Positions 7,409 through 23,534 of a stretch of 33,310 nucleotides of DNA are shown here, in pieces; positions within the stretch are counted from its first letter, which is position 1, and each line of letters opens with the position of its first letter. The position numbers and the translations under genes were made by a program. The stretch lies in NCBI GenBank assembly GCA_030537565.1, contig JAUNVS010000015.1, positions 1-33,310 of the forward strand, read 5' to 3'. The notes below the pieces were generated by a model, which had not been told where the DNA came from, ran no database searches, and saw only the letters and a list, made by a program, of their open reading frames with translations. This stretch comes from Eubacteriales bacterium. GTDB lineage: Bacteria > Bacillota > Clostridia > Saccharofermentanales > Fastidiosipilaceae.

Positions 7409-7864
7409 TCAGTCGAGATACTCCATTAACTCGAGGATGATCCCATCGGGATCACGGAAATAAATGGCCTTACTCCGGCCTAAGCCATCGTCCGTGAAAT
7501 CAAAAGACTGGGGGGCCGAGATACAATCGACCCCAGATGCGACGAGGTGCTGATAAACCGCATCAATATCGTCGACGACGAAGCAGACCTCAGAAATCGA
7601 TGTCATCCGTAAGTCGGAAGGGATAGCTCGGACTGGCGCATCGAGGAAGTGGATCAATTCGATCGAAGGGCTGTGAATCTCTTCAGAGCCTTTAAAATAA
7701 GCGACCTTCGCACGACAATTCTCGCCTCCGAAGAGGGCATCGGTCTCCGGTCCCTCCATCAGCATTTCTCCGAGAAATTTTAACCCTAGCAGTTCACCAT
7801 AAAACTGCTTCGAACGTTCCATATCACTGACGGTAAGGCCAATGTGAACCACAGCACCTAGCAT
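7409..7864 (-). CDS. VOC family protein (glyoxalase/dioxygenase fold)
   Basis: A 151-residue vicinal oxygen chelate protein with two repeated beta-alpha-beta-beta-beta units. The first begins VVHIGLTVSDMERSKQFYGELLGLKFL, the second EVCFVVDDIDAVYQHLVASGV and ends in YFRDPDGIILELMEYL. The last segment supplies the usual metal-binding Glu, and His7 in the first strand is a likely partner. The family includes lyases, isomerases and resistance proteins; the substrate is unknown here. I chose the ATG at 7864, which has AAAGAGG seven bases upstream, over a start 15 codons earlier that lacks an RBS. It is the first gene of a two-gene unit with the membrane protein. TTGACA occurs upstream without a clear -10. 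Confidence 0.85.
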   Translation of the reverse strand: MLGAVVHIGLTVSDMERSKQFYGELLGLKFLGEMLMEGPETDALFGGENCRAKVAYFKGSEEIHSPSIELIHFLDAPVRAIPSDLRMTSISEVCFVVDDIDAVYQHLVASGVDCISAPQSFDFTDDGLGRSKAIYFRDPDGIILELMEYLD

Positions 7865-8169
7865 TGTAAATACCTCTTTTCTCTGCGTAAGTCTATTCTT
7901 ACAGGTCAAGCGCCCATGTCAAGAAAAATTGAGAATATTATCTCGGAGCACAGCAAGTGCCAAGCCTAGATCCCCAGCTGAAATTGGATTTTTGAAAAAA
8001 ACACTACTAAGCAACCGCAGCTGCGCTACTATTGGTACAATAATTGCTAATTAACAATTGAAAAGGCATCGCCTATATTGTTGCCAAGCATGTTTGTTCA
8101 TTTTCTCACCCAGGCCTCTCATTGGATCTCGAGTCGCCACCCGCAGTTTCACTGCAAAAGGAGGAAGCA
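7865..8169. other. Divergent intergenic region before the P-family array
   Basis: This 305-base gap lies between the minus-strand VOC gene and P1. It contains TTGACA for the VOC direction (around 7914-7919), the predicted P1 promoter at 8051-8079 and an 85-base P1 leader. No further gene is visible. Confidence 0.6.
8051..8079 (+). promoter_or_regulatory. Promoter of P1
   Basis: TTAACA (five of six consensus bases) and TATATT (five of six) are separated by exactly 17 bases, in an AT-rich stretch about 90 bases before the P1 start codon. Confidence 0.65.
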
Positions 8170-9207
8170 ATGTTTCGACAAGTTAAGCTTTACAGTCTCA
8201 ACCCCCTACTCGCAGGACTTCTACTCATCGGATTGCTCGGTTTTGACCCCAATATCACCGGACCTTACAGCTACGATCAGTCGGCCGCTGCTGACCTCGT
8301 CTTCACTCAGGAAGATCTGTACAGTGGCTCACAGCAAGCGCATGAACGATCCGCGTCTGATTCCCCAGAGAGCGAAGATGAAGATAGAGGGCTTCCCAGC
8401 TTTAGTTTCGAGGTCGCCGAAGAACTCGTTACTCTGGTCTATGACGAGGACTTCTACGGAACCTACCTACTCCTCGAGCACGACGGATCCCTCTACTTTG
8501 CAGAGAATGATACAGCCGTAAACCGTGATGACTGCCTCGCCGAAATCAACATTAATACCGAGTGGAAATCCGACACCGCTGTTCTCCATACAACGTTCAC
8601 CCCATTACCTCATGAGTCCATTGTCTTAAGGCGCCTCGTCAAATCGAAGTCGACCTATTTTCAAGTCTACGAAGATGGAGAATTCTATCGATTGGAAATG
8701 CTCCCCGAGGAAGGGATTTCCATCGACTCCTTACGCGGTGAGGACCGTTTTTTACTCTTTGATTTTGACGAAGGGGAACTTCGTCTAAGGGCCGTAAGCG
8801 CTGAGATGCTGGGTGGCCCCGCCGACGAAACACCACCCACCAAACCGACACGCAAGCCACTACAGAGTCAAACTAGTGAGCTTCAGGAAAGTACAAAAAC
8901 ACTTAAGCCCGTGAGTCCTAAGAGTAGCGCTGCGGTTGAAAAAAATTACATCGACTATGCCCACGAAGCAGGTTACCACGAAAATGAGTACTTCTTCATC
9001 TTCGCCCAACGGATCGATGCCGAAGCATTTTACCGACAAACCCTCCTCGAATTCACGATCGAATATAACTCGGTCATGAGTCTCCCAGATGCAGACTCCA
9101 CAGACTATGAGTGGCAGAGCTACATGGGCAAGCATAATTTTAGCTATGCTAAGATCCATGAGTTCCCCAAATTCTCAGTCGTCGAGTTTTTCCGCTATGA
9201 TCAATAG
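8170..9207 (+). CDS. P1: KLYSLNP-family exported protein with C-terminal domain
   Basis: First of twelve paralogues; family not recognised. The 345-residue protein starts with the family motif KLYSLNPLLAG and a hydrophobic run (residues 6-24), probably an export signal or N-terminal anchor. An acidic variable part follows to about residue 75. The core domain ends in the conserved block TYFQVYEDGEFYRLEMLP at about residues 162-180 and FLLFDFDEGELRLR at 194-207. A P/K/S/T-rich linker spans about 215-255. The C-terminal domain (about 258-345) starts YIDYAHEAGYHENE and ends FSVVEFFRYDQ; it is shared with P2, P3, P7 and P8. I chose the ATG after AAAGGAGG, not the one 16 codons earlier. No LPXTG motif, lipobox or catalytic signature is visible. 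Confidence 0.85.
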   Translation: MFRQVKLYSLNPLLAGLLLIGLLGFDPNITGPYSYDQSAAADLVFTQEDLYSGSQQAHERSASDSPESEDEDRGLPSFSFEVAEELVTLVYDEDFYGTYLLLEHDGSLYFAENDTAVNRDDCLAEININTEWKSDTAVLHTTFTPLPHESIVLRRLVKSKSTYFQVYEDGEFYRLEMLPEEGISIDSLRGEDRFLLFDFDEGELRLRAVSAEMLGGPADETPPTKPTRKPLQSQTSELQESTKTLKPVSPKSSAAVEKNYIDYAHEAGYHENEYFFIFAQRIDAEAFYRQTLLEFTIEYNSVMSLPDADSTDYEWQSYMGKHNFSYAKIHEFPKFSVVEFFRYDQ

Positions 9208-9287
9208 TCTTTGATCGACGCGAGGGCTAGCCCCACTCCTGGCTTCGATTCCTATGTAAAAAATAGACGTTAGACAAAATTGAGCAT

Positions 9288-9359
9288 CTTTTACCAAGAA
9301 AGACCTGCTTTATCACTTTCCGCGAAGAAAGTGCCTTGTTTTTATCGTCTTGGTGAAAG
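9288..9359 (+). ncRNA. Nested stem structure in the P1-P2 gap
   Basis: A 12-base outer stem (CTTTTACCAAGA with TCTTGGTGAAAG, one G-U pair) encloses an inner hairpin (CACTTTC with GAAAGTG, six-base loop). The element lies in the 287-base space between P1 and P2 and has no T-tract of a normal terminator. It could be a leader structure for P2, a processing site or a DNA palindrome. Only its fold potential is seen. Confidence 0.4.
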
Positions 9360-9494
9360 AATATAGAGTGGAAACTAGTTTTGTGGCGTGCTCTAAGAGG
9401 GCCTCTGGCAGTTCTCGTATATTGAGTCCTCGATTTTCTAAATCAGATCAGTAATTATTAGGTGCATGTCCATTAAATACGAAAGGACGGATTC

Positions 9495-10622
9495 ATGTTT
9501 AAGCGATCGAAACTCTACAGTCTCAGCCCCCTCCTCGCAGCCATCCTCTTGATGGGTGCGATTGGAGTTGCCCCAACCGCCGACTATGAGAAGCTCACAA
9601 ACTCCGATGAGGAGATTTTCGCCCTCTTGCCAATGTCGGGCGAAGATATATCCCCCGCCGCCCATGGTGCAATCAGTGATGACGGCGAGCTTCTCGACTG
9701 GAATCTCGTCCTCGCAGACGAACTCTATCTCCAGCTCTTCGAAGACTCGGATGAAGTTCACTACGATCTCATCGCCGATGGAGGCGAACTGATCCTCCTT
9801 AGCAGCAATGAATCCAGTCCTAAGAAGCAGATTCTGAGCACCAAGCCCTCGAAGTCTTCTAAGGAGTCGAAATCCGACAAACTTCTGGCAAGCTTCACCC
9901 TTATCGGTCACGGCTACTATCCGCTCGAGGAATCCGACTCGGATGAACGGGATTTCTACCGCGCTGAAATCCACATCGACGTGGTCTCAACGCGCAGTCG
10001 CCTCTTTAATCGATTAAGGAATCAGGAACCGACGTATTTCCGTCTAAACGTGTCGGAAGATGCCGACGAAGTCCGTTTTGAAGTCCTACCTAAGGATGGA
10101 ATCGCAATCGATGAGGTCGAAGATGATGATCTCTTCTGCCTCGTTAATTTCCATCGCAAACTGATCCGTGTGCGGGTAAAGGATGGCGCCTCACTCAAAC
10201 CTGGTTCTGACAAGAGCCATAAAACAAAACGTATGCCTACAAAAGCCCCTCAGAAGAAACCGCGCAAACCGAAGCCCCGCAAGTCGAAGCCATCAACGGC
10301 AGCTCCGACGCCAATGCCAACTCCAGCGCCGACCCTCCCGCCGCCACCGCCCCCAAGCGTCAACAAAACCGCCATGGATTACGCGCGAGAGGAAGGCTAC
10401 ATCAGCGGTCCAGACACGTGGATCTTCGACAATTACGCGGAGGCTGAAACATTTTTAGATGGCTGTCTCACCGAATATAGTCAAGAATTGAATGTCTATC
10501 GAAGCCTCTCCCCCGAGGAGCAAGCCAACTTTAACTGGAACTCTTTAATGGGAGACTATGGATTCACGCGCTACGATTTCTTCGACCGGCAGAATTTTGC
10601 AGTGATTATTTTCTATCACTAA
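9495..10622 (+). CDS. P2: KLYSLNP-family exported protein with Pro-rich linker and C-terminal domain
   Basis: Longest member at 375 residues. It has the family N-terminus (KLYSLSPLLAAILLMGAIG) and an acidic N-terminal part. The core includes Y90-DLIADGGELILL, an ILST motif near 113, and the conserved YFRLNVSEDADEVRFEVLP at about 181-199 followed by DDDLFCLVNF. The linker (about 233-290) is first strongly basic, Lys/Arg/Pro-rich, then pure Pro/Thr/Ala with six consecutive prolines, unlike the acidic rest of the protein. That composition suits a cell-wall-spanning or wall-binding segment. The C-terminal domain (about 291-375) reads TAMDYAREEGY and ends FAVIIFYH. GAAAGGA precedes the ATG. Function unknown. 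Confidence 0.85.
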   Translation: MFKRSKLYSLSPLLAAILLMGAIGVAPTADYEKLTNSDEEIFALLPMSGEDISPAAHGAISDDGELLDWNLVLADELYLQLFEDSDEVHYDLIADGGELILLSSNESSPKKQILSTKPSKSSKESKSDKLLASFTLIGHGYYPLEESDSDERDFYRAEIHIDVVSTRSRLFNRLRNQEPTYFRLNVSEDADEVRFEVLPKDGIAIDEVEDDDLFCLVNFHRKLIRVRVKDGASLKPGSDKSHKTKRMPTKAPQKKPRKPKPRKSKPSTAAPTPMPTPAPTLPPPPPPSVNKTAMDYAREEGYISGPDTWIFDNYAEAETFLDGCLTEYSQELNVYRSLSPEEQANFNWNSLMGDYGFTRYDFFDRQNFAVIIFYH

Positions 10623-10680
10623 GAAGAGCGAGTCCTGAGGAGCCTTCGCTGGATTTATCGCCCATAGATGGAGTGCTTTT

Positions 10681-11754
10681 ATGTTTAGAAAATTCAAACT
10701 CTATAGTCTAAATCCATTCCTCGCTGGATTCTTGCTCCTCTCCGCCATAGCTGGTGCCTCGTATCCAAGCGGTGGCTATCACAGTTATAGTGACGAGGAT
10801 ATCCTGATTAACCTAAAAACGGTCGATTCGGAAAATGATCAGAGTGCATTTATCTCACTGCTTCTCGATCGAGAACTCCATGACCTCGTCCTCGATGACA
10901 GCGATCATAGTGAGTATGAGCTGCTTGCGTTTCCAGATGAATTTCTGATTCAGCGCCGATCGGAAGACTCCAGTGAGCAGGTCTCAACGAAGCAACGAAA
11001 AAAAGCCTATAAGCGTGTTGCGAGTTATGAACTCAGCCATACCGACTTCGACGCCCCAGCAAATGAAGAGGCCGAGTGGCAGGGGGTCAATATCAGCATC
11101 AACCGACGTGCCAATGGAACAAAGCACTGGTCGCGCCTACTCGCTCAGGAGGATTCCTATTTCCGTTTTAGTGAATCGAAGAAAGGGAATCAAATTCATC
11201 TCGAACCGATCCCCGACTCGGGTTTATCGGCCTCAGAGATAGACGACGAAGATATTTTCATCCTCTTTCACTTCGAGGATGACATCGCCCATATGGAGAT
11301 CGTCTACGGTAAAGATTTAAAAGCCGAGGCGAAAGCAAAACCAAGTCAATCGCGGCGTCAGTATCCAAAGCCGTCTTTGATTAAGCCAACAACGGCTCCG
11401 CGCACCACAAACGCAGCCGCTCATCCAGCGACCGCAGCGTCTCGGCCTACACCAACAGCCCCTCTACCGACGGAAACAGAAGTAGACCTGAGCTACCTCG
11501 ATCGTGCCTATGCGCAGGGCTTCTTCGATGATCCGATAAATGTCATCGTCCCCTCCTACGATGCGGGACTCAGTTACGGCTTCGAAGCAGTTCGTGAACG
11601 CGATGCAGAACTCACATACATGAACGGCTTAAGCTTGGCAGAGCTAGCCGAATATCAACCAACCTCACATATGTTAATGTTTTACGTTGATGGTTTCTGG
11701 GTGGAAGATTTCGGGGATTTTGCTATCTGTCACTTCACCAATTCTGGCAACTGA
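10681..11754 (+). CDS. P3: KLYSLNP-family exported protein with divergent C-terminal domain
   Basis: Family member of 357 residues, 58 bases after P2 and probably on the same transcript. The N-terminus is KLYSLNPFLAGFLLLSAIAG; an AIA-G sequence near residue 24 could be a signal peptidase site. The core contains a VSTK motif near 101, then SYFRFSESKKGNQIHLEPIP at about 159-178 and EDIFILFHFEDD. An Ala/Pro/Thr-rich linker spans about 215-265. The last 90 residues (SYLDRAYAQGFF ... FGDFAICHFTNSGN) align with the C-terminal domain of P1 but are more divergent: the W-x-S-x-M segment is replaced by PTSHMLMFYVDG. An RBS-like GATGGAG precedes the ATG. A terminator follows. Confidence 0.83.
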   Translation: MFRKFKLYSLNPFLAGFLLLSAIAGASYPSGGYHSYSDEDILINLKTVDSENDQSAFISLLLDRELHDLVLDDSDHSEYELLAFPDEFLIQRRSEDSSEQVSTKQRKKAYKRVASYELSHTDFDAPANEEAEWQGVNISINRRANGTKHWSRLLAQEDSYFRFSESKKGNQIHLEPIPDSGLSASEIDDEDIFILFHFEDDIAHMEIVYGKDLKAEAKAKPSQSRRQYPKPSLIKPTTAPRTTNAAAHPATAASRPTPTAPLPTETEVDLSYLDRAYAQGFFDDPINVIVPSYDAGLSYGFEAVRERDAELTYMNGLSLAELAEYQPTSHMLMFYVDGFWVEDFGDFAICHFTNSGN

Positions 11755-11773
11755 TTTCCAACACGTCGAACAA

Positions 11774-11804
11774 AAAAGAGGCTCGCTGATGAGAGCCTCT
11801 TTTT
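11774..11804 (+). terminator. Intrinsic terminator after P3
   Basis: AAAAGAGGCTC and GAGCCTCTTTT form an 11-bp stem with an eight-base loop, followed by more T residues. The A-run on the left arm lets it also work on the minus strand, downstream of the VOC gene that ends at 11916. Confidence 0.88.
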
Positions 11805-11915
11805 ATGGCATGATACCGATCTGGATTACAACTTCCTCGCCCGACTAGCGACCTCACCAGAGGCCAGTGCTCAGAGCATTCAAGTTTGCAAATTTGACAT
11901 CAGATCGTACGCAAA

Positions 11916-12560
11916 TCACTTCGCTACATATCCAAAATCGACTGAATGAATCTTCAAGCCATTGTTGGCGACCGAGACCTCTAAGCAAGGATCATCACTG
12001 AGGGCAGCAATTGCATCGGCACAACGTTGGCTCGTCGACAGACGGATCTTCTGGATGTGACTGACACCATTCGGGTGCACATAATTTTGGGGCTTCGGGT
12101 CAATACTGTAGTAACTCATAAGGAAAGGCATGTCGGGATCATCCGGAAAGTAATTCTGAAATTTAAGATTATTTCCGTGAGTATCTCGTCGATTACTATG
12201 CTTCAAATGATTCCCCGAGAAACCAAGTCGATTGACGCGCTCAATCGATGGCCGCAGGTCGCCAGCATCCTGTTCGATGCAGAAGTCGATCCAGCCTTCG
12301 TGCTCGCTGTTAAGAATCTTTTTAAAGCGCGCATGAACATGTTTTAAACCGATGAACTTCGAAAGAGAGATGAAAAAACGCACCATCCTGGTCGTTTTCT
12401 GGACCTGGATAAGTTCAATAAAAGGTCCCGTACTGAAATAGATCAGGGCATTAAATGGATGCTTCGGCTTACCATATTCGACACAGAATCCACGCTCACG
12501 CCAATCCCGGACCGCCGCATCTAAGTCCATCACCGCATAGATCACATGACTTGCTCGCAT
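11916..12560 (-). CDS. VOC/glyoxalase-like protein
   Basis: A 214-residue protein beginning MRASHVIYAVMDLDAAVRDW, followed by a Gly-Phe-x-Val-Glu-Tyr-Gly strand and NALIYFSTGPFIELIQV. This is the pattern of the longer glyoxalase-like VOC proteins (Pfam Glyoxalase_3 type) with a His near residue 5 and a Glu near residue 49 as probable metal ligands. Activity is unknown. AAGGAG lies nine bases before the ATG. It is the only minus-strand gene inside the array of P-family genes and separates P1-P3 from P4-P12. Its composition and RBS resemble the neighbouring housekeeping-type genes rather than the array. Confidence 0.82.
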   Translation of the reverse strand: MRASHVIYAVMDLDAAVRDWRERGFCVEYGKPKHPFNALIYFSTGPFIELIQVQKTTRMVRFFISLSKFIGLKHVHARFKKILNSEHEGWIDFCIEQDAGDLRPSIERVNRLGFSGNHLKHSNRRDTHGNNLKFQNYFPDDPDMPFLMSYYSIDPKPQNYVHPNGVSHIQKIRLSTSQRCADAIAALSDDPCLEVSVANNGLKIHSVDFGYVAK

Positions 12561-12872
12561 AGCACTTGTCTCCTTAAATGTATTATTAAAGAGATACTAT
12601 TCCCATCACGCCTGAGCTGCAAGCGAAGATGGCTTTGATCCCCCCAAATTTAAAAGCGGCCCAAGCGAGCGAAGCCGCACAATCCCTATGGCGAATACTC
12701 AAGCTAAAACAGGCGTCTATCCCACGAGTATGCCGATCAAAAAGAAATCAAATCTTACTTGCTCGCTTGATAACAAAGACTTTCTTTTATATTATTCTTA
12801 TATAGTTATATCTACGACACAGGCCCTGCCGCATCTCGTCGACGCTACGGCGGCATGAGAAAGGAAGGCTCG
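12561..12872. other. Divergent intergenic region before P4
   Basis: About 310 bases between the VOC gene and P4. It contains the leader and weak promoter candidates for the VOC gene, a strong promoter toward P4 at 12767-12795 and a leader of about 70 bases. No additional gene is seen. Confidence 0.6.
12767..12795 (+). promoter_or_regulatory. Promoter of P4 and downstream paralogues
   Basis: TTGATA (five of six) and TATTAT (four of six or better) are separated by 17 bases within a very AT-rich stretch, about 78 bases before the P4 start. Confidence 0.65.
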
Positions 12873-13574
12873 ATGCATAAGACTTGGAAACTCTACAGTC
12901 TCGCCCCGCTTCTCGCAGGAATCTTACTCCTCACCGGCCTCGGCTATGGGAGGTACTCGAAGCAGTATTTTCTCTTCGATGATTCAAACGATATCAACTT
13001 CGACGAACGCTTTGCGGATCATGATCCCGACAGTTTGGATCCCCAAGATCTAGACGCTCCGCACTGGCATCTAAAAGTCGGCCCCAACATCGCCAAGGAA
13101 ATTTTTCATGGTGAGAAAACAGCCTACTATGATCTCTTGGTCGAAAGGGATCGCTTTTTAATCCAAAAATCGAATCGTAAGACTCGTATGTCGTCTCGAA
13201 AACTCGAGGCACTCCAGAGAGAGGCCGACGTTGATAATCGCCTACTCGCCTACATCGACTGTATCGAACTCAAGCACTGGCCAGAGTCAACTGGTGGCAC
13301 ATATCTAAGTAGTCTCTACGAAATCCGAATAGAAATGAATTTTATCAATCGCGAGGCTCCCCTCTGGCAGGATCTCGAATCCCGAAGTGATTGCTATTTT
13401 CGCTGCACCCAAAGCAGCGAGGGGCTCATCCTCGAAGCGATCCCAAGCGAGGGGCTTCGCAGCGAAATGCTAGCAGATGATGATGAATTCGTACTCCTCA
13501 ACAAACTCGGTAAGTTAGTCATACTTCGAAGCAAGAGTGGCTTGGAAGTGAAAACGAGACATCCTGTCGGATAG
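12873..13574 (+). CDS. P4: KLYSLNP-family exported protein, core only
   Basis: Short member of 233 residues: N-terminal motif WKLYSLAPLLAGILLL, an acidic region rich in D (about 35-60), and the core domain, with no linker or C-terminal domain. The core block reads DCYFRCTQSSEGLILEAIP at about 173-191, followed by DDDEFVLLNKLGKLVILRS. I chose the ATG with AAAGGA upstream rather than the one six codons earlier. That upstream ATG-AGAAAGGA leader and the MHK-x-WKLYS start are shared only with P8, and both genes head a run of paralogues after a long gap. P5 follows after 11 bases. Function unknown. Confidence 0.83.
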   Translation: MHKTWKLYSLAPLLAGILLLTGLGYGRYSKQYFLFDDSNDINFDERFADHDPDSLDPQDLDAPHWHLKVGPNIAKEIFHGEKTAYYDLLVERDRFLIQKSNRKTRMSSRKLEALQREADVDNRLLAYIDCIELKHWPESTGGTYLSSLYEIRIEMNFINREAPLWQDLESRSDCYFRCTQSSEGLILEAIPSEGLRSEMLADDDEFVLLNKLGKLVILRSKSGLEVKTRHPVG

Positions 13575-13585
13575 AGGAGGGACTC

Positions 13586-14251
13586 ATGATGAAGAAGTCT
13601 TTTAAACTCTACAGTCTCAATCCATTTCTAGCGATCATTCTCCTGCTCGCTAGCTTCGGGGTCCTCGTCCACAACGATGGCATCCAGTACGATGCCTCAA
13701 TGAATGAATGGCTGATTGACCCGAGCTACGCAGAGTATTACGAATGTGGAAGTGGCTACTATCTCCACCAGATCGATGTCGACCATGTGGTCTGCTACCA
13801 AATTCTCGGCGACGAGTACGAGGTCCACTACGAAGTCGTCGAAGACAGCGAAGACCTCATCCTGAACAAACTTGGTGGAGAAGGCGTCCTAAGCACTGAG
13901 CGCCCAGTAAACAATCGCCGCATTGCCCATATCATTGTCTACCGTATTCCAGACTCTCTCTACTCAGAAGAAAATCGCTGTTCACTCAAACTGCTTACCG
14001 AAATTGAGCACGAGGATTCGGAGATCTGGATGCGCCTCAGCTCCCATCAGGATAGCTATTTCCATATCCTTGACGATGGGGATCGACTGCATCTAAACTT
14101 GATTCCCGAAAGTGGCCTTTCTCTCGAAGAGGTCTCCGCGGATGATGCCTACCTGCTCTTCGACTACAACGAAGAGAATCAACTGAATGTCAAGTTTTTA
14201 ATGGGAGCTCAGATCCTCTCCAATGCACTGCAGCCTGAGCCTGCACGTTAA
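13586..14251 (+). CDS. P5: KLYSLNP-family exported protein, core only
   Basis: Family member of 221 residues, the shortest. N-terminus FKLYSLNPFLAIILLLASFG, then a Tyr/Asp-rich region with YYECGSGYYLHQIDVDHVVCYQI. The core shows EYEVHYEVVEDSEDLILNKLG near 77-97, VLSTE near 101, NNRRIAHI, then EIWMRL and SYFHILDDGDRLHLNLIPESG at about 157-177 and DDAYLLFDYNEENQ. It ends just after the core. Two possible cysteines, C53 and C70, are not conserved in the other members. GGAGG precedes two consecutive ATGs. It is 11 bases after P4, so the two are co-transcribed. Function unknown. Confidence 0.83.
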   Translation: MMKKSFKLYSLNPFLAIILLLASFGVLVHNDGIQYDASMNEWLIDPSYAEYYECGSGYYLHQIDVDHVVCYQILGDEYEVHYEVVEDSEDLILNKLGGEGVLSTERPVNNRRIAHIIVYRIPDSLYSEENRCSLKLLTEIEHEDSEIWMRLSSHQDSYFHILDDGDRLHLNLIPESGLSLEEVSADDAYLLFDYNEENQLNVKFLMGAQILSNALQPEPAR

Positions 14252-14317
14252 CTCTGAGGTCTAAGCGCGCTATGGGAATAGCCCATTGGATCACAGATGG
14301 AATTAGAAAGGCATCCC

Positions 14318-15004
14318 ATGTTTAAGAAAGCTAAGCTCTACAACTTTGCTCCCATCCTCGCCAGTATCCTGATCGCAATCAGCCTCGGCTACAACTCCGT
14401 CCTCGACTCATTCGGATTCTCAAACGAGCTCTTCGAATGGACCTTAGATACAACAGTTCTAAACGAGGAGAAACCAAACTCACCTAGACGTATTCGTCTC
14501 CACCTCGATGAAGCCCTCTATCAGGATATCTTCCAAAATAATGAATCGGTTTATTACGATCTGCTCTGCGAAGATAATCAGCTCATGATTTCCTACCTCG
14601 GCCCAGAGACTACGCCGATCTCGACTCCTAAGACAAAGGTCCTCAGTACAAAAAAAGCCACTGACGATAGCCCCCAAGTCGATGAGCGACTGGTGGCTCG
14701 TTTCAACTTCAATACAGAATACCCGCCGAGCGAGGAATCACCATTTTATTATGAGGTCAGTTTGGAGATCCAGCTTATCAATGAAGATCTACCTCTCTTA
14801 AAAGAGATATCGGAGGAAGAGTCTGCCTATTTCCGTATCGCCCTAGCTGATGCCTATTGGTTTCTCGAACGACTTCCAGAGGAGGGCATTCGTCCAGACA
14901 CGATCGAGCCCTATGAGGACTTCCTCCTCATAGACCGAGTCGGTAACGATCTGCGCTTCCGCTGCATTAGCGGCGCCGACCTGACCCGATGGCATAACTC
15001 GTAA
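14318..15004 (+). CDS. P6: KLYSLNP-family exported protein, core only
   Basis: Family member of 228 residues. The N-terminus is a diverged form of the motif, KLYNFAPILASILIAISLG. The core is recognisable: SVYYDLLCEDNQLMISYLG at about 77-95, VLSTKKATDD near 108, YYEVSLEIQLI, then SAYFRIALADAYWFLERLP at about 169-187 and EDFLLIDRVGNDLRFR. There is no linker or C-terminal domain. The start was chosen after GAAAGG; an ATG seven codons earlier lacks an RBS. Spacing to P5 is 66 bases and to P7 58 bases with no terminator, which suggests one P4-P7 transcript. Function unknown. Confidence 0.82.
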   Translation: MFKKAKLYNFAPILASILIAISLGYNSVLDSFGFSNELFEWTLDTTVLNEEKPNSPRRIRLHLDEALYQDIFQNNESVYYDLLCEDNQLMISYLGPETTPISTPKTKVLSTKKATDDSPQVDERLVARFNFNTEYPPSEESPFYYEVSLEIQLINEDLPLLKEISEEESAYFRIALADAYWFLERLPEEGIRPDTIEPYEDFLLIDRVGNDLRFRCISGADLTRWHNS

Positions 15005-15062
15005 TCATCCGTAGTGATCTGCGCATATGCAGGACCTCGACCCATAGAAGAAAGGCTGCCCT

Positions 15063-16100
15063 ATGTCCAAGTCATTTAAACTATTCAGCTTTAGTCCGCT
15101 CATCGCTGCCTACCTATTAGTTCAAGCTATTGGCGGCGGAGTTCCCGTCGATGAGTACCGCTATGAAAACTACGTCGATTCAGTCGAGATCTCGATGTTC
15201 CAACGCCTCGATATTGAAGATGATGTACCACAGCATAAATTGCTACAGCTCCCCCGCAAGTCGAAAAAAAAACAGTCTTCGTTGCGGTCATTCTTCGCGA
15301 ACACCCAGGTCACACCGGACTTCGACATGGATCTCTGCCGCGGGCGTCTCGAAGCACGCTATGAGGTGAATCTCGATGACGAGGCTCTCATCGTAAAACG
15401 CCTCGACAACCGCCGGATCTTCAACAGCGAACATCCAAAAAATGAGGAGAGGATCGCCTTTATCCGCATTGACCGCGACCCGAATTATACTGGCGATGGA
15501 TTTACCCTATTAAATGTCCGCATCGATATTGAGCGCGATGACTCCGAAATCTGGCAGCGACTCTGGGAAAAACATAGTAGCTACTTTCACGTCATCGAAT
15601 ACCACGACGAAATGCGTTTTGAACCGATCCCCGACTCAGGTCTAGATCCCGAAGATATCGAAGATGACGACTCCTATGTTCTCTTCGACTTCGACGGCGA
15701 CACACTCCAGTTACAGGTCAAGCTCGGTTGGGAATTGAAACCCCAAGTCGAGAGCAGCACCTCGCCAGCCCCCATCGTAACGGCCGCCCCCACGTACCCA
15801 GCAGCAAATGTTACAAAGACGTATTTGGATTATGCCCATGAGGCTGGCATCTACGAACAAGTAAACCTCCTGATTTTTCCAGACTACGCCTCTGCAGTAG
15901 ACTTCGTCTCAGGTTGCGAAACGGAGAAGTCGATGGAACTGTATTACTATGCCAACATGAGCGATGAGGAAAAAGCGAACTACACTTGGACGTCCTACCT
16001 CATCGTAAATGACTTCCAATCGTGGCAAATTATTGACCATGGTCCCTTCGTCATCCTCAACTTCTCAAGTGGTTTTATCCTGGACGGACTCTGCAACTGA
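15063..16100 (+). CDS. P7: KLYSLNP-family exported protein with C-terminal domain
   Basis: Family member of 345 residues. N-terminus FKLFSFSPLIAAYLLVQAIGG. An unusual basic patch (PRKSKKKQSSLRS, about 64-76) interrupts the acidic region. The core shows LEARYEVNLDDEALIVKRLD near 96-115, ERIAFIRI, EIWQRL, then SYFHVIEYHDEMRFEPIP at about 173-190 and DDSYVLFDFDGDTLQLQ. A short Pro/Thr/Ala linker (about 232-248) leads to the C-terminal domain, YLDYAHEAGIYEQ to the end. The domain resembles those of P1, P2 and P8 but has a longer end, FVILNFSSGFILDGLCN. RBS GAAAGG. Last gene of the P4-P7 group. Confidence 0.84.
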   Translation: MSKSFKLFSFSPLIAAYLLVQAIGGGVPVDEYRYENYVDSVEISMFQRLDIEDDVPQHKLLQLPRKSKKKQSSLRSFFANTQVTPDFDMDLCRGRLEARYEVNLDDEALIVKRLDNRRIFNSEHPKNEERIAFIRIDRDPNYTGDGFTLLNVRIDIERDDSEIWQRLWEKHSSYFHVIEYHDEMRFEPIPDSGLDPEDIEDDDSYVLFDFDGDTLQLQVKLGWELKPQVESSTSPAPIVTAAPTYPAANVTKTYLDYAHEAGIYEQVNLLIFPDYASAVDFVSGCETEKSMELYYYANMSDEEKANYTWTSYLIVNDFQSWQIIDHGPFVILNFSSGFILDGLCN

Positions 16101-16462
16101 CCCAGAGAAGCCTTTACAAAGAACATTCTCTAGACTTCATAGGAGGAGAAAGACTTTTGCGCCTCAAAACATAGTAAATGTCCGATGGTCGAGTAAATCA
16201 AAATTCTCTCTTTTTATCCGCCGATTTCCGCATCAAAAACAGACGGATACTAATTTTTGCACTTTTTCCATTCTGAACCGCTTCATTTTTTGCCATTTTA
16301 AAAATAAGCCTTGATTTTATATTGTAATTGGATAACTATGAGGACAGATAATAAGTATTGTCGCTCTAATTGCGTGATGTTTTACTCCCCTGCTGAGCCC
16401 GCTACAATCGTTCGATCTCCTCCGTCCCTTTACCGCTGCTTACAATGAGAAAGGAGCACTCG
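16101..16462. other. Intergenic region between P7 and P8
   Basis: A 362-base gap whose middle is AT-rich. The only promoter-like pair I see is TTGATT, 17 bases, AACTAT at 16311-16339, with a weak -10. No terminator with a good stem follows P7, so P8 may be reached partly by read-through. A 101-residue open frame across the end of P7 is not convincing as a gene. Confidence 0.5.
16311..16339 (+). promoter_or_regulatory. Weak candidate promoter before P8
   Basis: TTGATT (four of six) and AACTAT (three of six) are 17 bases apart in an AT-rich stretch about 120 bases before P8. The -10 match is poor, so this is tentative. Confidence 0.3.
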
Positions 16463-17512
16463 ATGCATAAGTCATGGAAACTCTACTCCCTGAGCCCACT
16501 GCTTGCCGGTCTATTGTTGCTCGGAGCACTGGGGGGAGAGTATCGGCCCATCGATGATTTCTTCACTGAAAACGACACCGAAGTCCACCTCAACCTCAGC
16601 GAAGAATATCAGCAGGATAAGTCAGATGATGAGACTCTCTTCCAAGTTCAATCTGCAAGCGATGTCTTCCCATCGATCTTTAGTCTCGAAGAGAAGCTTT
16701 GCGAGCAACTATTCGAAGGCAGCGATATCGCCTACTTCGAGATCATAGATGATGCTCACGGCCTCTGTGTTAAGAAGTATACGGAAAACTCGCAGCGTAG
16801 ACACCGCGGGGATACAAACGAACACATTCTCTTCATCCAAGCGGCTCCAAACCCTGCTCGAATCGCCCTAATCGAATTATCGCGCCTCAACGAAAATTTC
16901 GACATAAACCATGACCGCGCCTATCAACCCGTATTCCTCCACATCGAATTAGAAAAGTATGAGCCAGAGCTCTGGCAGCGTTTGCTCGACCATCAATCAA
17001 TTTATTTTCAGCTCGATGAGAGCTCTGATCAGATTTCCCTGTCAGCGATTGATTTAAGTGAACTGTCTACCTATTCTCTCCCCGATGACGAAAATCTTCT
17101 CTACGTCAATTATGGGGATGGAAGTATCCACCTCCAACTTCTGAAAGGAAGAGATATACAAGCACAAACACCTATCAAGCAAACTCAAGCCCCTCAGCCA
17201 ATCACCCAATCGCCTCCACCCAGCAGCCAAGTCCAGCAACCCAGTACCTTAATAACGAAAACAGCCATCGACCATGCAAAAGAAGCCGGTTTTTTCCCCG
17301 GCGATAACTGCTTCATTTTTGACAGTCGTCACGAGGCAGAAAGCGTAGCTTTTGATCTCGGAATGGATTACGATGCCGAAATCACTGCTTATATAAATTT
17401 ATCGGATGAAGAAAAACAAAACTTCACATGGCATAGCTACATGGGGAGTCGCGGGTTTTCAACTTACGAGATCAAGAGCTTCCCGCAATTCTCTGTAATA
17501 CTGTTTTACTAG
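16463..17512 (+). CDS. P8: KLYSLNP-family exported protein with C-terminal domain
   Basis: Family member of 349 residues and head of the P8-P12 group. The N-terminus MHKSWKLYSLSPLLAGLLLLGALGG closely matches P4. The core is diverged: a long D/E/S/Q-rich region to about 75, IAYFEIIDDAHGLCV near 89-103, then SIYFQLDESSDQISLSAIDL at about 179-198 and ENLLYVNYGDGSIHLQLL. A Gln/Pro-rich linker (about 233-264) precedes the C-terminal domain, TAIDHAKEAGFFPGDN ... FTWHSYMGSRGFSTYE ... FSVILFY, ending exactly at the conserved last strand. AAAGGAG precedes the chosen ATG. Spacing to P9 is 72 bases. Function unknown. Confidence 0.84.
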   Translation: MHKSWKLYSLSPLLAGLLLLGALGGEYRPIDDFFTENDTEVHLNLSEEYQQDKSDDETLFQVQSASDVFPSIFSLEEKLCEQLFEGSDIAYFEIIDDAHGLCVKKYTENSQRRHRGDTNEHILFIQAAPNPARIALIELSRLNENFDINHDRAYQPVFLHIELEKYEPELWQRLLDHQSIYFQLDESSDQISLSAIDLSELSTYSLPDDENLLYVNYGDGSIHLQLLKGRDIQAQTPIKQTQAPQPITQSPPPSSQVQQPSTLITKTAIDHAKEAGFFPGDNCFIFDSRHEAESVAFDLGMDYDAEITAYINLSDEEKQNFTWHSYMGSRGFSTYEIKSFPQFSVILFY

Positions 17513-17584
17513 TAGCTTTTTCCCACAATTTTCCCACAAATAATGGAACATCAAATGGCTTATACGTTAGGAGGAGATAATCCC

Positions 17585-18580
17585 ATGAAGAAGATTTTTA
17601 AAGTCTACAGCTTAAATCCACTTCTCGCTGGACTTCTGCTAATTGGCGCGCTCGGTGGAGTCTACGTCGAGCACAAAGAGCCCTTCCGCTCCAACGAGAC
17701 GAAGGTTGTTCTTCCGATGGACCCCGAAGAATCGTCCAATCTAGACGAGGAGATTCACGCCCCCTTCACCCAGGCTCTAGTCGGCAACACTGCCGTCCGG
17801 GAGAAGCTCCTCGAAGATGAAAGTTCGAAGCCCTATGAACTCCTCTACCAAGATCGGCAATTCGTCTTCCAGCCGGCTCCCCTTATCGACGAGGACTCTG
17901 AGGACGATTACCTCTTGAGTACCGAAGTCGACCTGCTCGTTAAACCCAATGAAGATCGTCTCGCCCTCTTCACTGTCAACGAAGGCTTCGATGACGTATA
18001 CCGCAACCCAGAGACCGGCAATGAAGAAGCCGTCCACCAGTTCCAAGTCAACCACGATTTCCAATACGTTAAATCGTCCGTATGGGATCGTCTGAGATCC
18101 CATCGCGACACTTTCTTTAAAGTCCTCGTCGATGGTGAGCGAATTATCTTCGATCCACTACCAAACTATGGCATAAAGCGCTCAGCAATTAGAGACGATG
18201 ACCTCTACGCCCTCGTTAAGTACGAGAAAATCGAAGGAACAGAAAACGAACATGAGGATTCCGAGAGTGTTTATCGCGAAAACATCATCTTCATCTTAAT
18301 CCGTGGTGCTGAAGTTAAAGATCAAAATCCGAAGAGCCAGAAGCAAACGCCTGCGCCACCAAGCAAATATTATCCACCCGCCACAGCACCTTACATTCCC
18401 CCCACTACACAAGAATCGATAGACGAGTGGTATGAGACCTGGGTTCCCGAGCCAAGCGTTCCAGATGATGTCAGTGAGCCAATACCGACTGAACCACCAC
18501 TGACTGCGCCCCCTCAGACTGAGCCAAGCACAACTGCGCCAAGTACGACGGTTGAACACCTGCCAGGATGGATTGATTAA
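17585..18580 (+). CDS. P9: KLYSLNP-family exported protein with P/T-rich tail
   Basis: Family member of 331 residues. N-terminus FKVYSLNPLLAGLLLIGALGGVYVEH, then a subgroup-specific NETKVVLPM strand. Residues 44-290 are identical to those of P10. The core includes KPYELLYQDRQFVFQP near 82-97, LLST near 110, VWDRL, TFFKVLVDGERIIFDPLP at about 176-193, DDDLYALVKY and IIFILIRGAEVK. From about 253 it becomes low complexity, with YY and PP repeats. The last 41 residues are unique: acidic Pro/Thr-rich with repeats of the type T-x-P-x-T. There is no C-terminal globular domain. GGAGGAG precedes the chosen ATG. No sortase motif. Function unknown. Confidence 0.85.
   Translation: MKKIFKVYSLNPLLAGLLLIGALGGVYVEHKEPFRSNETKVVLPMDPEESSNLDEEIHAPFTQALVGNTAVREKLLEDESSKPYELLYQDRQFVFQPAPLIDEDSEDDYLLSTEVDLLVKPNEDRLALFTVNEGFDDVYRNPETGNEEAVHQFQVNHDFQYVKSSVWDRLRSHRDTFFKVLVDGERIIFDPLPNYGIKRSAIRDDDLYALVKYEKIEGTENEHEDSESVYRENIIFILIRGAEVKDQNPKSQKQTPAPPSKYYPPATAPYIPPTTQESIDEWYETWVPEPSVPDDVSEPIPTEPPLTAPPQTEPSTTAPSTTVEHLPGWID
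17714..18455 (+). repeat. 742-bp direct repeat, copy A (in P9)
   Basis: By eye this block matches 18817-19558 at every position but one (18409 A against 19512 T). Sequence on both sides differs at many bases upstream and wholly downstream, so the copy is internal to the gene. This looks like recent gene conversion or partial duplication. Confidence 0.92.
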
Positions 18581-18687
18581 TCCATCCTGACGTCACACGT
18601 TCTCTCACCTGTGCCCCAATATATCATCCTAGCGGAACCTCAACTCGAAGCGTCCCTGGTAATGGAGTGATCATGAAAGGATTCACG

Positions 18688-19779
18688 ATGTTAAAAAAAT
18701 TTAAACTCTACAACTTAACTCCCCTCCTCGCTGGACTTTTGCTAATCGGCTCGCTCGGTGGGGTCTACGTCGAACACGAAGAACCCTTTCGCTCCAACGA
18801 GACGAAGGTCGTTCTCCCGATGGACCCCGAAGAATCGTCCAATCTAGACGAGGAGATTCACGCCCCCTTCACCCAGGCTCTAGTCGGCAACACTGCCGTC
18901 CGGGAGAAGCTCCTCGAAGATGAAAGTTCGAAGCCCTATGAACTCCTCTACCAAGATCGGCAATTCGTCTTCCAGCCGGCTCCCCTTATCGACGAGGACT
19001 CTGAGGACGATTACCTCTTGAGTACCGAAGTCGACCTGCTCGTTAAACCCAATGAAGATCGTCTCGCCCTCTTCACTGTCAACGAAGGCTTCGATGACGT
19101 ATACCGCAACCCAGAGACCGGCAATGAAGAAGCCGTCCACCAGTTCCAAGTCAACCACGATTTCCAATACGTTAAATCGTCCGTATGGGATCGTCTGAGA
19201 TCCCATCGCGACACTTTCTTTAAAGTCCTCGTCGATGGTGAGCGAATTATCTTCGATCCACTACCAAACTATGGCATAAAGCGCTCAGCAATTAGAGACG
19301 ATGACCTCTACGCCCTCGTTAAGTACGAGAAAATCGAAGGAACAGAAAACGAACATGAGGATTCCGAGAGTGTTTATCGCGAAAACATCATCTTCATCTT
19401 AATCCGTGGTGCTGAAGTTAAAGATCAAAATCCGAAGAGCCAGAAGCAAACGCCTGCGCCACCAAGCAAATATTATCCACCCGCCACAGCACCTTACATT
19501 CCCCCCACTACTCAAGAATCGATAGACGAGTGGTATGAGACCTGGGTTCCCGAGCCAACAACTCCGACTCCGACTCGAACCATCCCAATAATCGATCCAA
19601 CGTCGACTGGATTCGGACCAGATCCCTCACAGTATCCAGACCCTTCAGGTGGAAATTCTGATTTTGCGCCGCCTGGTTATACCCCTCCAAATGACACCAC
19701 AAATGGAAATAATGATTTGGTACCACCTGGCTATACCCCTGCAGATGATGAAACTATGCCGACTGTTTATTGTCCCTAA
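18688..19779 (+). CDS. P10: KLYSLNP-family exported protein with repeat-bearing tail
   Basis: Family member of 363 residues. N-terminus FKLYNLTPLLAGLLLIGSLGGVYVEH. Residues 44-290 are identical to P9. The tail after residue 290 is unrelated to that of P9: Pro/Thr/Asp-rich, with two tandem 18-residue units (about 322-339 and 340-357), each containing the PPGYTP hexamer. It ends in TVYCP, with a single cysteine near the end. The start was chosen after AAAGGA; the preceding 20 bases are nearly the same as before P11. Its export and domain plan match P9, P11 and P12. Function unknown. Confidence 0.85.
   Translation: MLKKFKLYNLTPLLAGLLLIGSLGGVYVEHEEPFRSNETKVVLPMDPEESSNLDEEIHAPFTQALVGNTAVREKLLEDESSKPYELLYQDRQFVFQPAPLIDEDSEDDYLLSTEVDLLVKPNEDRLALFTVNEGFDDVYRNPETGNEEAVHQFQVNHDFQYVKSSVWDRLRSHRDTFFKVLVDGERIIFDPLPNYGIKRSAIRDDDLYALVKYEKIEGTENEHEDSESVYRENIIFILIRGAEVKDQNPKSQKQTPAPPSKYYPPATAPYIPPTTQESIDEWYETWVPEPTTPTPTRTIPIIDPTSTGFGPDPSQYPDPSGGNSDFAPPGYTPPNDTTNGNNDLVPPGYTPADDETMPTVYCP
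18817..19558 (+). repeat. 742-bp direct repeat, copy B (in P10)
   Basis: Partner of 17714-18455, offset 1103 bases, one mismatch seen. Borders are sharp at the downstream end, where the tails of P9 and P10 become unrelated, and graded at the upstream end, where the genes stay similar but not identical. Confidence 0.92.
19651..19758 (+). repeat. Two 54-bp tandem repeats in the P10 tail
   Basis: Units at 19651-19704 and 19705-19758, in frame, each coding 18 residues with a central PPGYTP. The two differ at several bases, so the duplication is not fresh. Confidence 0.75.
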
Positions 19780-19860
19780 CAGGAAGCAAGAGTTACTCGT
19801 CCTGTTTAGATCTCAGTCCGAAGAGCTCATGACAATCACATGATCATGAAAGGATTGACC

Positions 19861-20904
19861 ATGTTAAAGAAATTGAAACTCTATAGTCTAAATCCTCTCC
19901 TTGCAGGTCTACTTCTAATCGGTTCGCTTGGTGGAATCTACATCGAACACGAAGAGCCATTCACCTCCGACGAAACGAAGGTGGTGCTTCCAATGTATCT
20001 CGAAAATGAGTATTTAGATGACAACTATTACGACGATGATAACTATGAATATCGAGTCCCTGCCCCCTTCGCCTCAGTTCTTGTCGGTACTGAAGCCGTC
20101 AAGAAAAAACTCCTCGGAAATAAAAAAATTAAGCCCTATGAGCTCCTTTATCAGCACGAACGCTTCATTTTCCAAGCAGCCGAGGTGATCGAAGAGGCAA
20201 GCGTCCTCAACCTAATTGAAAACGAACTAAGTGTCGCAGAGAACGATAACCGTCTCGTCCTCTTCACCGTCCGAGAAGATTTCGACAATGATCATCAGCC
20301 TAGTCAACGCTCTGGACGCAGATCGCGTCTCCATTACTTCACCGTAAACTTCGACTTTGAAGATCTCGAATCGCCAATTTGGGATCGCCTGATGGACAAA
20401 AAGGACTGCTACTATCGTGTTCTTATAGATGGCGAGAGAATTGTTTTGATTCCCCTTCCTCTTACGGGAATCAAACGTTCGAAGGTTAAAGCAAACGACC
20501 TCTTCGCACTCGTAAAATTCGATAAAATTCGCGACAAAGACTGGTCGAAAAGAAGCCAGCATCACTTTGAAGAAGACGATGATGAATTCGAAAATCAAAT
20601 CACCTTCCTGCTGATTAGTGGTGCCGATATTCGGAAAGGGAAAAAAACTCGGAAGACGACGGGATCACAATACTTTCCGCCTGTCCCAGGCTGCCCACCG
20701 AATTGCACTAATCCCATTATCGATGGTCCGTTTGGCTGGGAAGAATGGGAAGAAGAGGAAACTACCGAGGCATACCCCAGCAGTGAGTCACAGACGTATA
20801 ACTATCACGAAGATCCGTCTTCTCAAACCACGCCACTGCCGTCATCAGCTCCGACGACTGCAGCTCCGACCACAACAGCTGAAACGTACCCTGTCATTAA
20901 CTAA
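19861..20904 (+). CDS. P11: KLYSLNP-family exported protein with P/T/S-rich tail
   Basis: Family member of 347 residues. N-terminus LKLYSLNPLLAGLLLIGSLGGIYIEH, then ETKVVLPM. A D/N/Y-rich stretch (about 51-64, DDNYYDDDNYEY) sits where P9 and P10 have DPEES. The core shows KPYELLYQHERFIFQA, IWDRL, CYYRVLIDGERIVLIPLP near 181-198, NDLFALVKFDKI and ITFLLISGADIRKGKK. The tail begins near 263 and carries a Cys pair in CPPNC, then acidic and P/T/S-rich sequence ending in TTAAPTTTAETYPVIN-type repeats. AAAGGA precedes the chosen ATG. Spacing to P12 is 120 bases. Function unknown. Confidence 0.84.
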   Translation: MLKKLKLYSLNPLLAGLLLIGSLGGIYIEHEEPFTSDETKVVLPMYLENEYLDDNYYDDDNYEYRVPAPFASVLVGTEAVKKKLLGNKKIKPYELLYQHERFIFQAAEVIEEASVLNLIENELSVAENDNRLVLFTVREDFDNDHQPSQRSGRRSRLHYFTVNFDFEDLESPIWDRLMDKKDCYYRVLIDGERIVLIPLPLTGIKRSKVKANDLFALVKFDKIRDKDWSKRSQHHFEEDDDEFENQITFLLISGADIRKGKKTRKTTGSQYFPPVPGCPPNCTNPIIDGPFGWEEWEEEETTEAYPSSESQTYNYHEDPSSQTTPLPSSAPTTAAPTTTAETYPVIN

Positions 20905-21024
20905 GTTTATAGGTTTAACTGGTCTGAGAAGCAAAGGCTGAAAGGCTGTTAGAATAGTTGTACATTAAGCACCACTGTTCTGCCTGAGGAAACATAACTT
21001 AGGGATGAAAGGAAAGGCTTTGCA

Positions 21025-22065
21025 ATGCAAAAGAAATTTATCCTTTACAGTTTAAACCCCCTACTTGCGGGACTCCTGTTGATCGGCTCGCTCGGTGGTA
21101 TTTACATCGAACATGACAAGCCATTTACGGCCAGTGAAACGAAGGTCGTCCTCCCGATGTACCCTGAAGACGATGGCGAGGACGCCTATGACAGCGAGGC
21201 TTACTTTCAGAGGATTCCAGATCCCTTTGCTTCGGGACTCATAGGGACGAAGACTGTCAAGAAAAAACTCCTCAAGCAAGAAGAGAAGAAGCCCTATGAG
21301 CTAGTCTACCAGGATGGTCAATTCATCTTTCAGCCAGCTGTCGTCGTCGAAAATAGAAATATCCTCAGTCTCGTTGAAAATGAAGATACAGTTGCTGAAA
21401 ATGATGATCGCCTAATCCTTTTCACACTTAACGAAAACGGACACGATCAGTTCTACTACTTCACAGTGAATTTTGATTTTCAAGATCTCGAATGTCCGAT
21501 ATGGGATCGGCTTAAAGAAAAAAAGGACAGCTACTACCGAGTCCTTATGGATGGTGAGCGGATCATTTTCGCGCCGCTCCCACCTAAGGGAATCCTGCGT
21601 TCTAAAATTAAGGCGGGCGACCTATTTGCACTCGTAAAATTCGACATCATTCCACTTCGAAAAGAAGCCAAGAAGGCTGACGCTATGTTTCGAGAAGATG
21701 AGAACAGCAAAGAACATAAGATTACATTCCTCTTGATTAGTGGTGATGAAGTTAAAAATAAAAAGAAACACAAGAAGAGAAAAAAGAGCTCCTCGCAACC
21801 ATCAGTCCAGTATTATGTACCTGGTTCCACCGTACCCAGTCGCGAAGATCCCTACGATGACGATAACTACTACGACGACTATGACCACAATGATGTTGAG
21901 GACGACCATAGCAGCAGCAATCTGGGGCAGACGAGCACGTACTCAAACCCAAACACGGCAGACGATGTGATACCTCCCTCCAGCGAATTCACTCCATTCT
22001 TCTATGAATCTTGGCTAAAGGAGCAACAAGCAACAAGCCCCCCAGCTGACGAAATTGAACCCTAG
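21025..22065 (+). CDS. P12: KLYSLNP-family exported protein, last of the array
   Basis: Family member of 346 residues. N-terminus FILYSLNPLLAGLLLIGSLGGIYIEH, with ETKVVLPMYPEDD. The core shows KPYELVYQDGQFIFQP near 89-104, the pair EDTVAENDDRLILFTL, IWDRL, SYYRVLMDGERIIFAPLP at about 169-186, GDLFALVKFD and ITFLLISGDEVK. A very basic stretch (NKKKHKKRKK, about 245-254) follows, then a D/Y/N-rich segment (about 275-295) that resembles the one near the N-terminus of P11, then a P/S/T tail. GAAAGG precedes the ATG. A strong hairpin lies 22 bases after the stop. Function unknown. Confidence 0.84.
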   Translation: MQKKFILYSLNPLLAGLLLIGSLGGIYIEHDKPFTASETKVVLPMYPEDDGEDAYDSEAYFQRIPDPFASGLIGTKTVKKKLLKQEEKKPYELVYQDGQFIFQPAVVVENRNILSLVENEDTVAENDDRLILFTLNENGHDQFYYFTVNFDFQDLECPIWDRLKEKKDSYYRVLMDGERIIFAPLPPKGILRSKIKAGDLFALVKFDIIPLRKEAKKADAMFREDENSKEHKITFLLISGDEVKNKKKHKKRKKSSSQPSVQYYVPGSTVPSREDPYDDDNYYDDYDHNDVEDDHSSSNLGQTSTYSNPNTADDVIPPSSEFTPFFYESWLKEQQATSPPADEIEP

Positions 22066-23460: not shown

Positions 23461-23470
23461 GTTAGTTTTT

Positions 23471-23509
23471 AATAAGTGAGGGACTTCCCGTCCCTTGCTT
23501 ATTTTTTTT
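23471..23509 (+). terminator. Intrinsic terminator between the two zinT genes
   Basis: AATAAGTGAGGGAC pairs with GTCCCTTGCTTATT (two G-U pairs, five-base loop) and ends in eight T residues. It lies 10 bases after the zinT1 stop. There is too little room for a new promoter before zinT2, so zinT2 probably depends on read-through. Confidence 0.9.
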
Positions 23510-23534
23510 GATTAAATTCTTCAAGGAGGATTGT

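What the first reader, a model, noticed from the sequence alone, without database searches (positions are those of the whole stretch)
8170..22065. Array of twelve paralogous, acidic, apparently exported proteins
Twelve consecutive plus-strand genes (P1-P12) share an N-terminal motif and a core domain of about 200 residues, with recurring blocks such as [SC]-Y-F/Y-x-V-x-x-D-G-E, P-L/I-P-x-x-G-I, D-D-x-F/Y-x-L-V/F-x-F, and an L-S-T-[EK] motif. They fill nearly 14 kb, broken only by one opposite-strand gene. I recognise no named family. Expansion, diversification of tails and recent conversion tracts suggest a surface system under selection for variety, such as adhesion, immune or phage evasion, or inter-strain competition. 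The function is inference.
Basis: partly seen in the sequence, partly recalled or inferred. Interest (0 to 1): 0.88.

Follow-up and report, generated by a model that had tools for sequence, protein, structure and literature searches.

The report
Orphan tandem family of exported proteins
One uncultured clostridial genome carries a run of twelve related, acidic, exported proteins (plus one or two elsewhere) belonging to a family we could find in no other sampled genome or database; they share a strongly conserved export leader but have very different bodies, which points to a lineage-specific surface protein system of unknown target.

Summary
Twelve intact plus-strand paralogues lie at 8170-22065, interrupted by one minus-strand glyoxalase-like gene. 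All are acidic (pI 4.3-5.1) and start with a signal-peptide-like leader. A profile of the twelve finds a thirteenth member on another contig (E 1e-60); a probable fourteenth is cut by a contig end. No relative was found in 187 other genomes of the order, about 770 more of the class and phylum, viral, phage, plasmid or species-genome collections, Pfam, NCBIfam, PHROGs, PADLOC or the PDB. The leader is 61% identical between paralogues although its synonymous sites are randomised, whereas the cores are 23% identical: the leader is held by selection on the protein. The core is two copies of one beta-rich unit; six members add a second domain behind a proline/threonine-rich linker. P9 and P10 share a 742-bp stretch with one mismatch between diverged ends, a gene-conversion signature. 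No fold match was found. Best reading: a lineage-restricted surface or secreted binding-protein family, using a sequence-specific leader and diversified by duplication, tail swapping and conversion.

The parts
8170..9207 (+). P1, 345 aa: leader, two-unit core, linker, C-terminal domain (CTD)
9495..10622 (+). P2, 375 aa: leader, core, P/K/T-rich linker, CTD
10681..11754 (+). P3, 357 aa: leader, core, linker, CTD
11916..12560 (-). Interrupting Glyoxalase_3 (VOC) gene, not a family member
   Evidence: PF13468 E 5e-19
12873..13574 (+). P4, 233 aa: leader and core only
13589..14251 (+). P5, 220 aa: leader and core only; core model m53abfc2becbf (pLDDT 78, pTM 0.72)
14318..15004 (+). P6, 228 aa: leader and core only
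15063..16100 (+). P7, 345 aa: leader, core, linker, CTD; full model mfbc6cb783aee (pLDDT 75)
16463..17512 (+). P8, 349 aa: leader, core, linker, CTD
17585..18580 (+). P9, 331 aa: leader, core, P/T-rich tail without CTD
18688..19779 (+). P10, 363 aa: leader, core, different P/T/G-rich tail
19861..20904 (+). P11, 347 aa: leader, core, P/T-rich tail
21025..22065 (+). P12, 346 aa: leader, core, acidic/P-rich tail
17714..18455 (+). Near-identical tract in P9 (nt 130-871 of the gene), the same as 18817-19558 in P10: one mismatch in 742 bp, between diverged ends
18817..19558 (+). The same tract in P10
15063..15134 (+). Example of the 24-residue leader (P7); family consensus [KR]xxKLYS[LF][NSA]P[LFI]LA[GA]xLLxG[AST][LI]G
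15819..16097 (+). Example of the C-terminal domain (P7)
   Evidence: structure

Best explanation
This is a lineage-restricted multigene family of exported envelope or secreted proteins. Shown: a conserved 24-residue N-terminal leader (positive n-region, hydrophobic stretch, small-x-G end) precedes a fast-diverging core built from two copies of one beta-alpha-beta-beta-beta unit; some members add a flexible P/T-rich linker and a second domain. Shown: the family is saturated at synonymous sites, so it is old, yet the leader stays 61% identical, so its exact sequence is under selection. Shown: a core-and-linker tract is nearly identical between P9 and P10 although their ends differ. Inferred: the leader takes all members by the general Sec route (one SecA) to one place in the envelope, through a recogniser that reads its sequence, where they are released or stay tethered by it. 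The differing cores and tails then bind different surface or environmental ligands, as in other arrays of exported paralogues. Which ligand is unknown.
For: Family reality. Export features: n-region charge and hydrophobic residues 9-25, with no other comparable hydrophobic segment except the C-terminal end of P7; [AST]-[LIF]-G at residues 22-24 in most members. Leader conservation is position-specific: K6, L7, Y8, P12, A15, L18 and G24 are invariant or nearly so; observed identity 0.62 over residues 9-24 against 0.20 (maximum 0.25) when residues are shuffled within each h-region. Fourfold-site identity in the leader is 0.32 against 0.28 expected by composition, while amino-acid identity is 0.61 there and 0.23 in the core. 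Single SecA. Internal duplication: hhalign probability 75, score 28.4 against a best of 13.9 in 60 column shuffles, matched by the repeated secondary structure in two models. CTD shared by six members. Conversion: pS 0.38 in the P9/P10 N-terminus, 0.00 in the core. Short gaps within P2-P3, P4-P7 and P8-P12.
Against: No ligand, anchor or partner gene was identified. Export itself was read from sequence features; no signal-peptide predictor or experiment was available, and leader cleavage is unknown. No positive selection is detected (pN<pS). The leader occurs only in this family and one truncated protein, so its conservation could reflect something other than a dedicated sorting route. The function step is analogy.
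Confidence: 0.5

Rival explanations
1. Co-expressed structural envelope proteins: the paralogues assemble together into a coat, layer or pilus-associated structure, and divergence reflects subunit specialisation rather than variety against an opponent.
For: Probable operons by spacing; no phase-variation elements; strong leader constraint; P13 sits divergently beside TadE/DUF5702-like envelope genes.
Against: Core identity of only ~23% and unrelated tails are unusual for co-assembling subunits; no cell-wall-binding or S-layer domain is hit in Pfam or NCBIfam; the Tad-like neighbours are beside one member only.
Confidence: 0.22
2. Secreted effectors or antagonists released from the cell that act on host or competitor molecules, as staphylococcal exotoxin-like arrays do.
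For: Tandem array, signal-peptide-like leader, ~200-residue cores, no anchor motif, recent conversion.
Against: No toxin or superantigen-like family in Pfam/NCBIfam; no fold match; P/T-rich linkers and CTD suggest display; no immunity-gene pattern.
Confidence: 0.18
3. The leader is an uncleaved membrane anchor whose exact sequence mediates helix-helix contact with a membrane partner, so the family are membrane-bound sensors or inhibitors rather than secreted or wall-associated proteins.
For: Invariant P12, A15 and frequent G16 inside the hydrophobic stretch; no lipobox or LPXTG.
Against: The h-region is short (about 13-15 residues) and ends in a plausible signal-peptidase site; no partner gene is linked.
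Confidence: 0.1

Closest known systems
Staphylococcus aureus csa1 and related tandem lipoprotein arrays (PMC7360770)
   Same: Tandem array of exported paralogues that changes by recombination between copies; physiological role unresolved
   Different: csa1 genes encode lipoproteins and are 61-80% identical to each other (PMC7360770); here there is no lipobox cysteine and cores are ~23% identical
YSIRK/GXXS signal peptides of staphylococcal and streptococcal surface proteins (PMC5962339)
   Same: A sequence-conserved signal peptide on otherwise different exported proteins; Y-S and a central G at comparable positions
   Different: Here Y-S-L-N-P-L-L-A-G; no R-K, no S at the GXXS position, no LPXTG; no NCBIfam YSIRK hit
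Staphylococcal superantigen-like (SSL/exotoxin-like) array (own knowledge)
   Same: About a dozen tandem exported paralogues with ~200-residue bodies
   Different: No sequence-family match; no fold match found; here extra linkers and a CTD
Clostridioides difficile slpA/cwp paralogue locus (own knowledge)
   Same: Array of exported paralogues in a clostridium, conserved part plus variable part
   Different: No CWB2 cell-wall-binding domain; here the most conserved part is the leader

Membership tests
Bacterial lipoproteins (csa1/lpl-type arrays) | Lipobox cysteine at the end of the signal peptide | tested here: not met
   No cysteine near residues 20-26 in any of the 13 leaders
Bacterial lipoproteins (csa1/lpl-type arrays) | Match to a curated lipoprotein family | tested here: not met
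   Pfam search of ten members and P13, and NCBIfam search of all twelve, gave no hit over cut-off
YSIRK/GXXS surface proteins | YSIRK-G/S signal motif | tested here: not met
   Leader reads KLYSLNPLLAG; NCBIfam gives no YSIRK model at E<=1
YSIRK/GXXS surface proteins | C-terminal LPXTG sorting signal | tested here: not met
   C-termini have no LPXTG motif followed by a hydrophobic anchor and charged tail; the genome does encode a sortase
KxYKxGKxW accessory-Sec substrates | KxYKxGKxW motif and SecA2 | tested here: not met
   Only K-x-Y shared, no NCBIfam hit; a single SecA found, in an 84% complete genome
Staphylococcal superantigen-like proteins | Sequence family match | tested here: not met
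   No Pfam or NCBIfam hit
Staphylococcal superantigen-like proteins | OB-fold plus beta-grasp architecture | tested here: inconclusive
   No such entry among the Foldseek or VIA-align rows shown, but weak or missing matches do not exclude a fold
C. difficile cwp/S-layer paralogues | CWB2 repeats (PF04122) | tested here: not met
   No Pfam hit in ten members and P13
Phase-variable antigen arrays | One expressed locus with silent copies, or invertible/slippable switch elements | tested here: inconclusive
   All twelve have start codon, upstream ribosome-like site and intact frame; only weak, imperfect inverted repeats and no slippage tracts; expression was not measurable
OspA | Sequence homology | tested here: not met
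   Best PDB sequence match E 0.03-0.045, limited to a ~40-55-residue stretch around a YEL/L-F hairpin

The most novel reading that the evidence does not exclude
The leader is a previously undescribed class of sequence-specific export or sorting signal (K-L-Y-S-L-x-P-L-L-A-G...), read by a dedicated recogniser in a single-SecA clostridium, and the core is a new fold made by internal duplication of a beta-alpha-beta-beta-beta unit.
Probability: 0.25. Interest if true: 0.75.

Novelty: new variant of a known kind. Interest (0 to 1): 0.52.

Why it matters
The protein family itself appears undescribed and so far confined to one genome, yet it is old (saturated synonymous sites) and large (at least 13 genes, close to 1% of a 1.6-Mb genome). 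It offers a clean case in which a signal-peptide-like leader is the most conserved part of a secreted family, which makes the idea of sequence-specific export signals outside YSIRK directly testable, and it is a natural set for studying how exported paralogues diverge by tail swapping and gene conversion.

Tried and rejected
Pfam, NCBIfam, PHROGs and PADLOC gave nothing credible. The OspA match in the PDB is a short hairpin resemblance. Class and phylum genome hits (E 0.001-0.005) are low-complexity sequence, a solute-binding protein and a histidine kinase: chance. CTD-only hits in the order: nine at E 0.005-0.04 over 188 genomes, about the number expected by chance. The one leader-pattern hit in another genome of the family lies in a locus of his genes, with no ORF like the family there. 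Across the order the leader pattern occurs at most once per other genome, near the level of the reversed-pattern control. Structure searches: best Foldseek E 0.049 against the PDB and 0.037 against viral models, VIA-align Z at most 3.8, i.e. nothing. Phage, plasmid, viral-contig and species-genome scans were negative. Hypothesis that the leader is conserved only through recent conversion: rejected by randomised fourfold sites. Hypothesis that it is conserved only by hydrophobic composition: rejected by shuffling. Promoter-like sites were no more frequent than in shuffles.

Full report
What is there. The window is a complete contig (C60) of an 81-contig, 1.59-Mb genome, 84% complete; its asparaginyl-tRNA synthetase places it among the Clostridia, at 62% identity or less to the nearest named records. 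Twelve intact plus-strand genes (P1-P12) fill 8170-22065. Gaps are 14-120 bp inside P2-P3, P4-P7 and P8-P12, and 287, 1118 and 362 bp between those groups; the largest holds a minus-strand Glyoxalase_3 gene at 11916-12560. All-against-all BLASTP joins all twelve. A profile of the twelve finds a thirteenth, P13, on contig C23 at E 1e-60, beside methylglyoxal synthase-like and RadC-like genes and divergent from TadE/DUF5702-like genes. A protein cut by the end of contig C64 has the leader but no detectable core similarity; I count it as a probable fourteenth.

Anatomy. (i) A 24-residue leader, [KR]xxKLYS[LF][NSA]P[LFI]LA[GA]xLLxG[AST][LI]G. (ii) A core of ~190 residues. Profile comparison of its two halves gives probability 75 and score 28.4 against at most 13.9 for 60 column shuffles, so it is very probably an internal duplication; two AlphaFold2 models, P7 full length and the P5 core, show the same repeated strand-helix-strand-strand-strand pattern. 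(iii) Three kinds of ending: none (P4-P6); P/T-rich or acidic tails (P9-P12, one clade, support 100/99); or a linker plus an ~85-residue alpha/beta C-terminal domain (P1, P2, P3, P7, P8, P13). Mature proteins have pI 4.3-5.1. There is no lipobox, LPXTG or C-terminal anchor.

How it evolves. Among the thirteen, leaders are 61% identical and cores 23-24%. Fourfold-degenerate sites in the leader agree in 32% of comparisons where composition alone predicts 28%, so the leaders have not been homogenised recently; protein-level selection keeps them. Shuffling residues within each hydrophobic region gives 20% identity, at most 25%, against 62% observed, so hydrophobicity does not explain it either. 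K6, L7, Y8, P12, A15, L18 and G24 are invariant or nearly so. In contrast, P9 and P10 share nt 130-871 of the gene with one mismatch, while the 5' ends differ (pS 0.38) and the tails are unrelated: gene conversion or chimeric duplication of core plus linker. Misassembly of this tract cannot be excluded without reads. In the remaining alignable pairs pS is 0.70-0.83 and pN 0.26-0.38 in the core: no sign of positive selection, but saturation makes the test weak.

Distribution. No member in the 11 other genomes of the family, 187 others of the order, or samples of ~390 each from class and phylum (the few weak hits are chance). The leader pattern occurs 12 times in this genome, at most once in any other genome of the order, and 0 times reversed in this one. 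Species-genome, viral, phage and plasmid collections are negative (the scans rest on one leader pattern and are therefore weak), as are Pfam, NCBIfam, PHROGs, PADLOC and PDB sequences. Structure searches return nothing above background; this does not show that the fold is new. No other genome of the same genus was available, so restriction to a species or a genus cannot be told apart. Metagenomes could not be searched.

Interpretation. The leader has the build of a Sec signal peptide, the genome has one SecA, and a sortase exists but the proteins lack its signal. The best-supported reading is an old, lineage-restricted family of exported proteins sharing one sequence-specific leader and diversifying cores and tails, most likely binding proteins at or outside the surface. 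Export is well supported by sequence features; sequence-specific targeting is inferred from constraint; binding function is analogy with other arrays of exported paralogues such as csa1, whose copies recombine and whose benefit is likewise unresolved (PMC7360770), and with signal peptides that carry sorting information (YSIRK/GXXS, PMC5962339 abstract).

Verdict. A real, new protein family in a familiar kind of genomic arrangement; the unusual feature is that its signal leader is the most conserved part.

Noticed in passing
window 22741-24752: Two ZinT-like genes, the second a two-domain fusion, upstream of ZnuA-like and ABC transporter genes; 545 bp (22915-23459 and 24207-24751) are 98.3% identical, a second recent duplication or conversion event next to the array.
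   Followed up: partly
L025:7218-7553 (contig C64 end): Probable fourteenth leader-bearing protein cut off by the contig end after a nucleoside-hydrolase-like gene; its core is not recognisably related, so the leader may be used more widely or a second array may start here.
   Followed up: partly
L022:11272-14253: TadE-like and DUF5702-like genes divergent from P13; possible link between the family and a Tad-type envelope system.
   Followed up: no
window 7409-7909 and 11916-12560: Two glyoxalase/VOC genes of different Pfam families, one beside and one inside the array, both on the minus strand.
   Followed up: no
window 19560-19779 (P10 tail): P10 tail contains two copies of a PPGYTP motif, possibly a young internal repeat (translation).
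   Followed up: no
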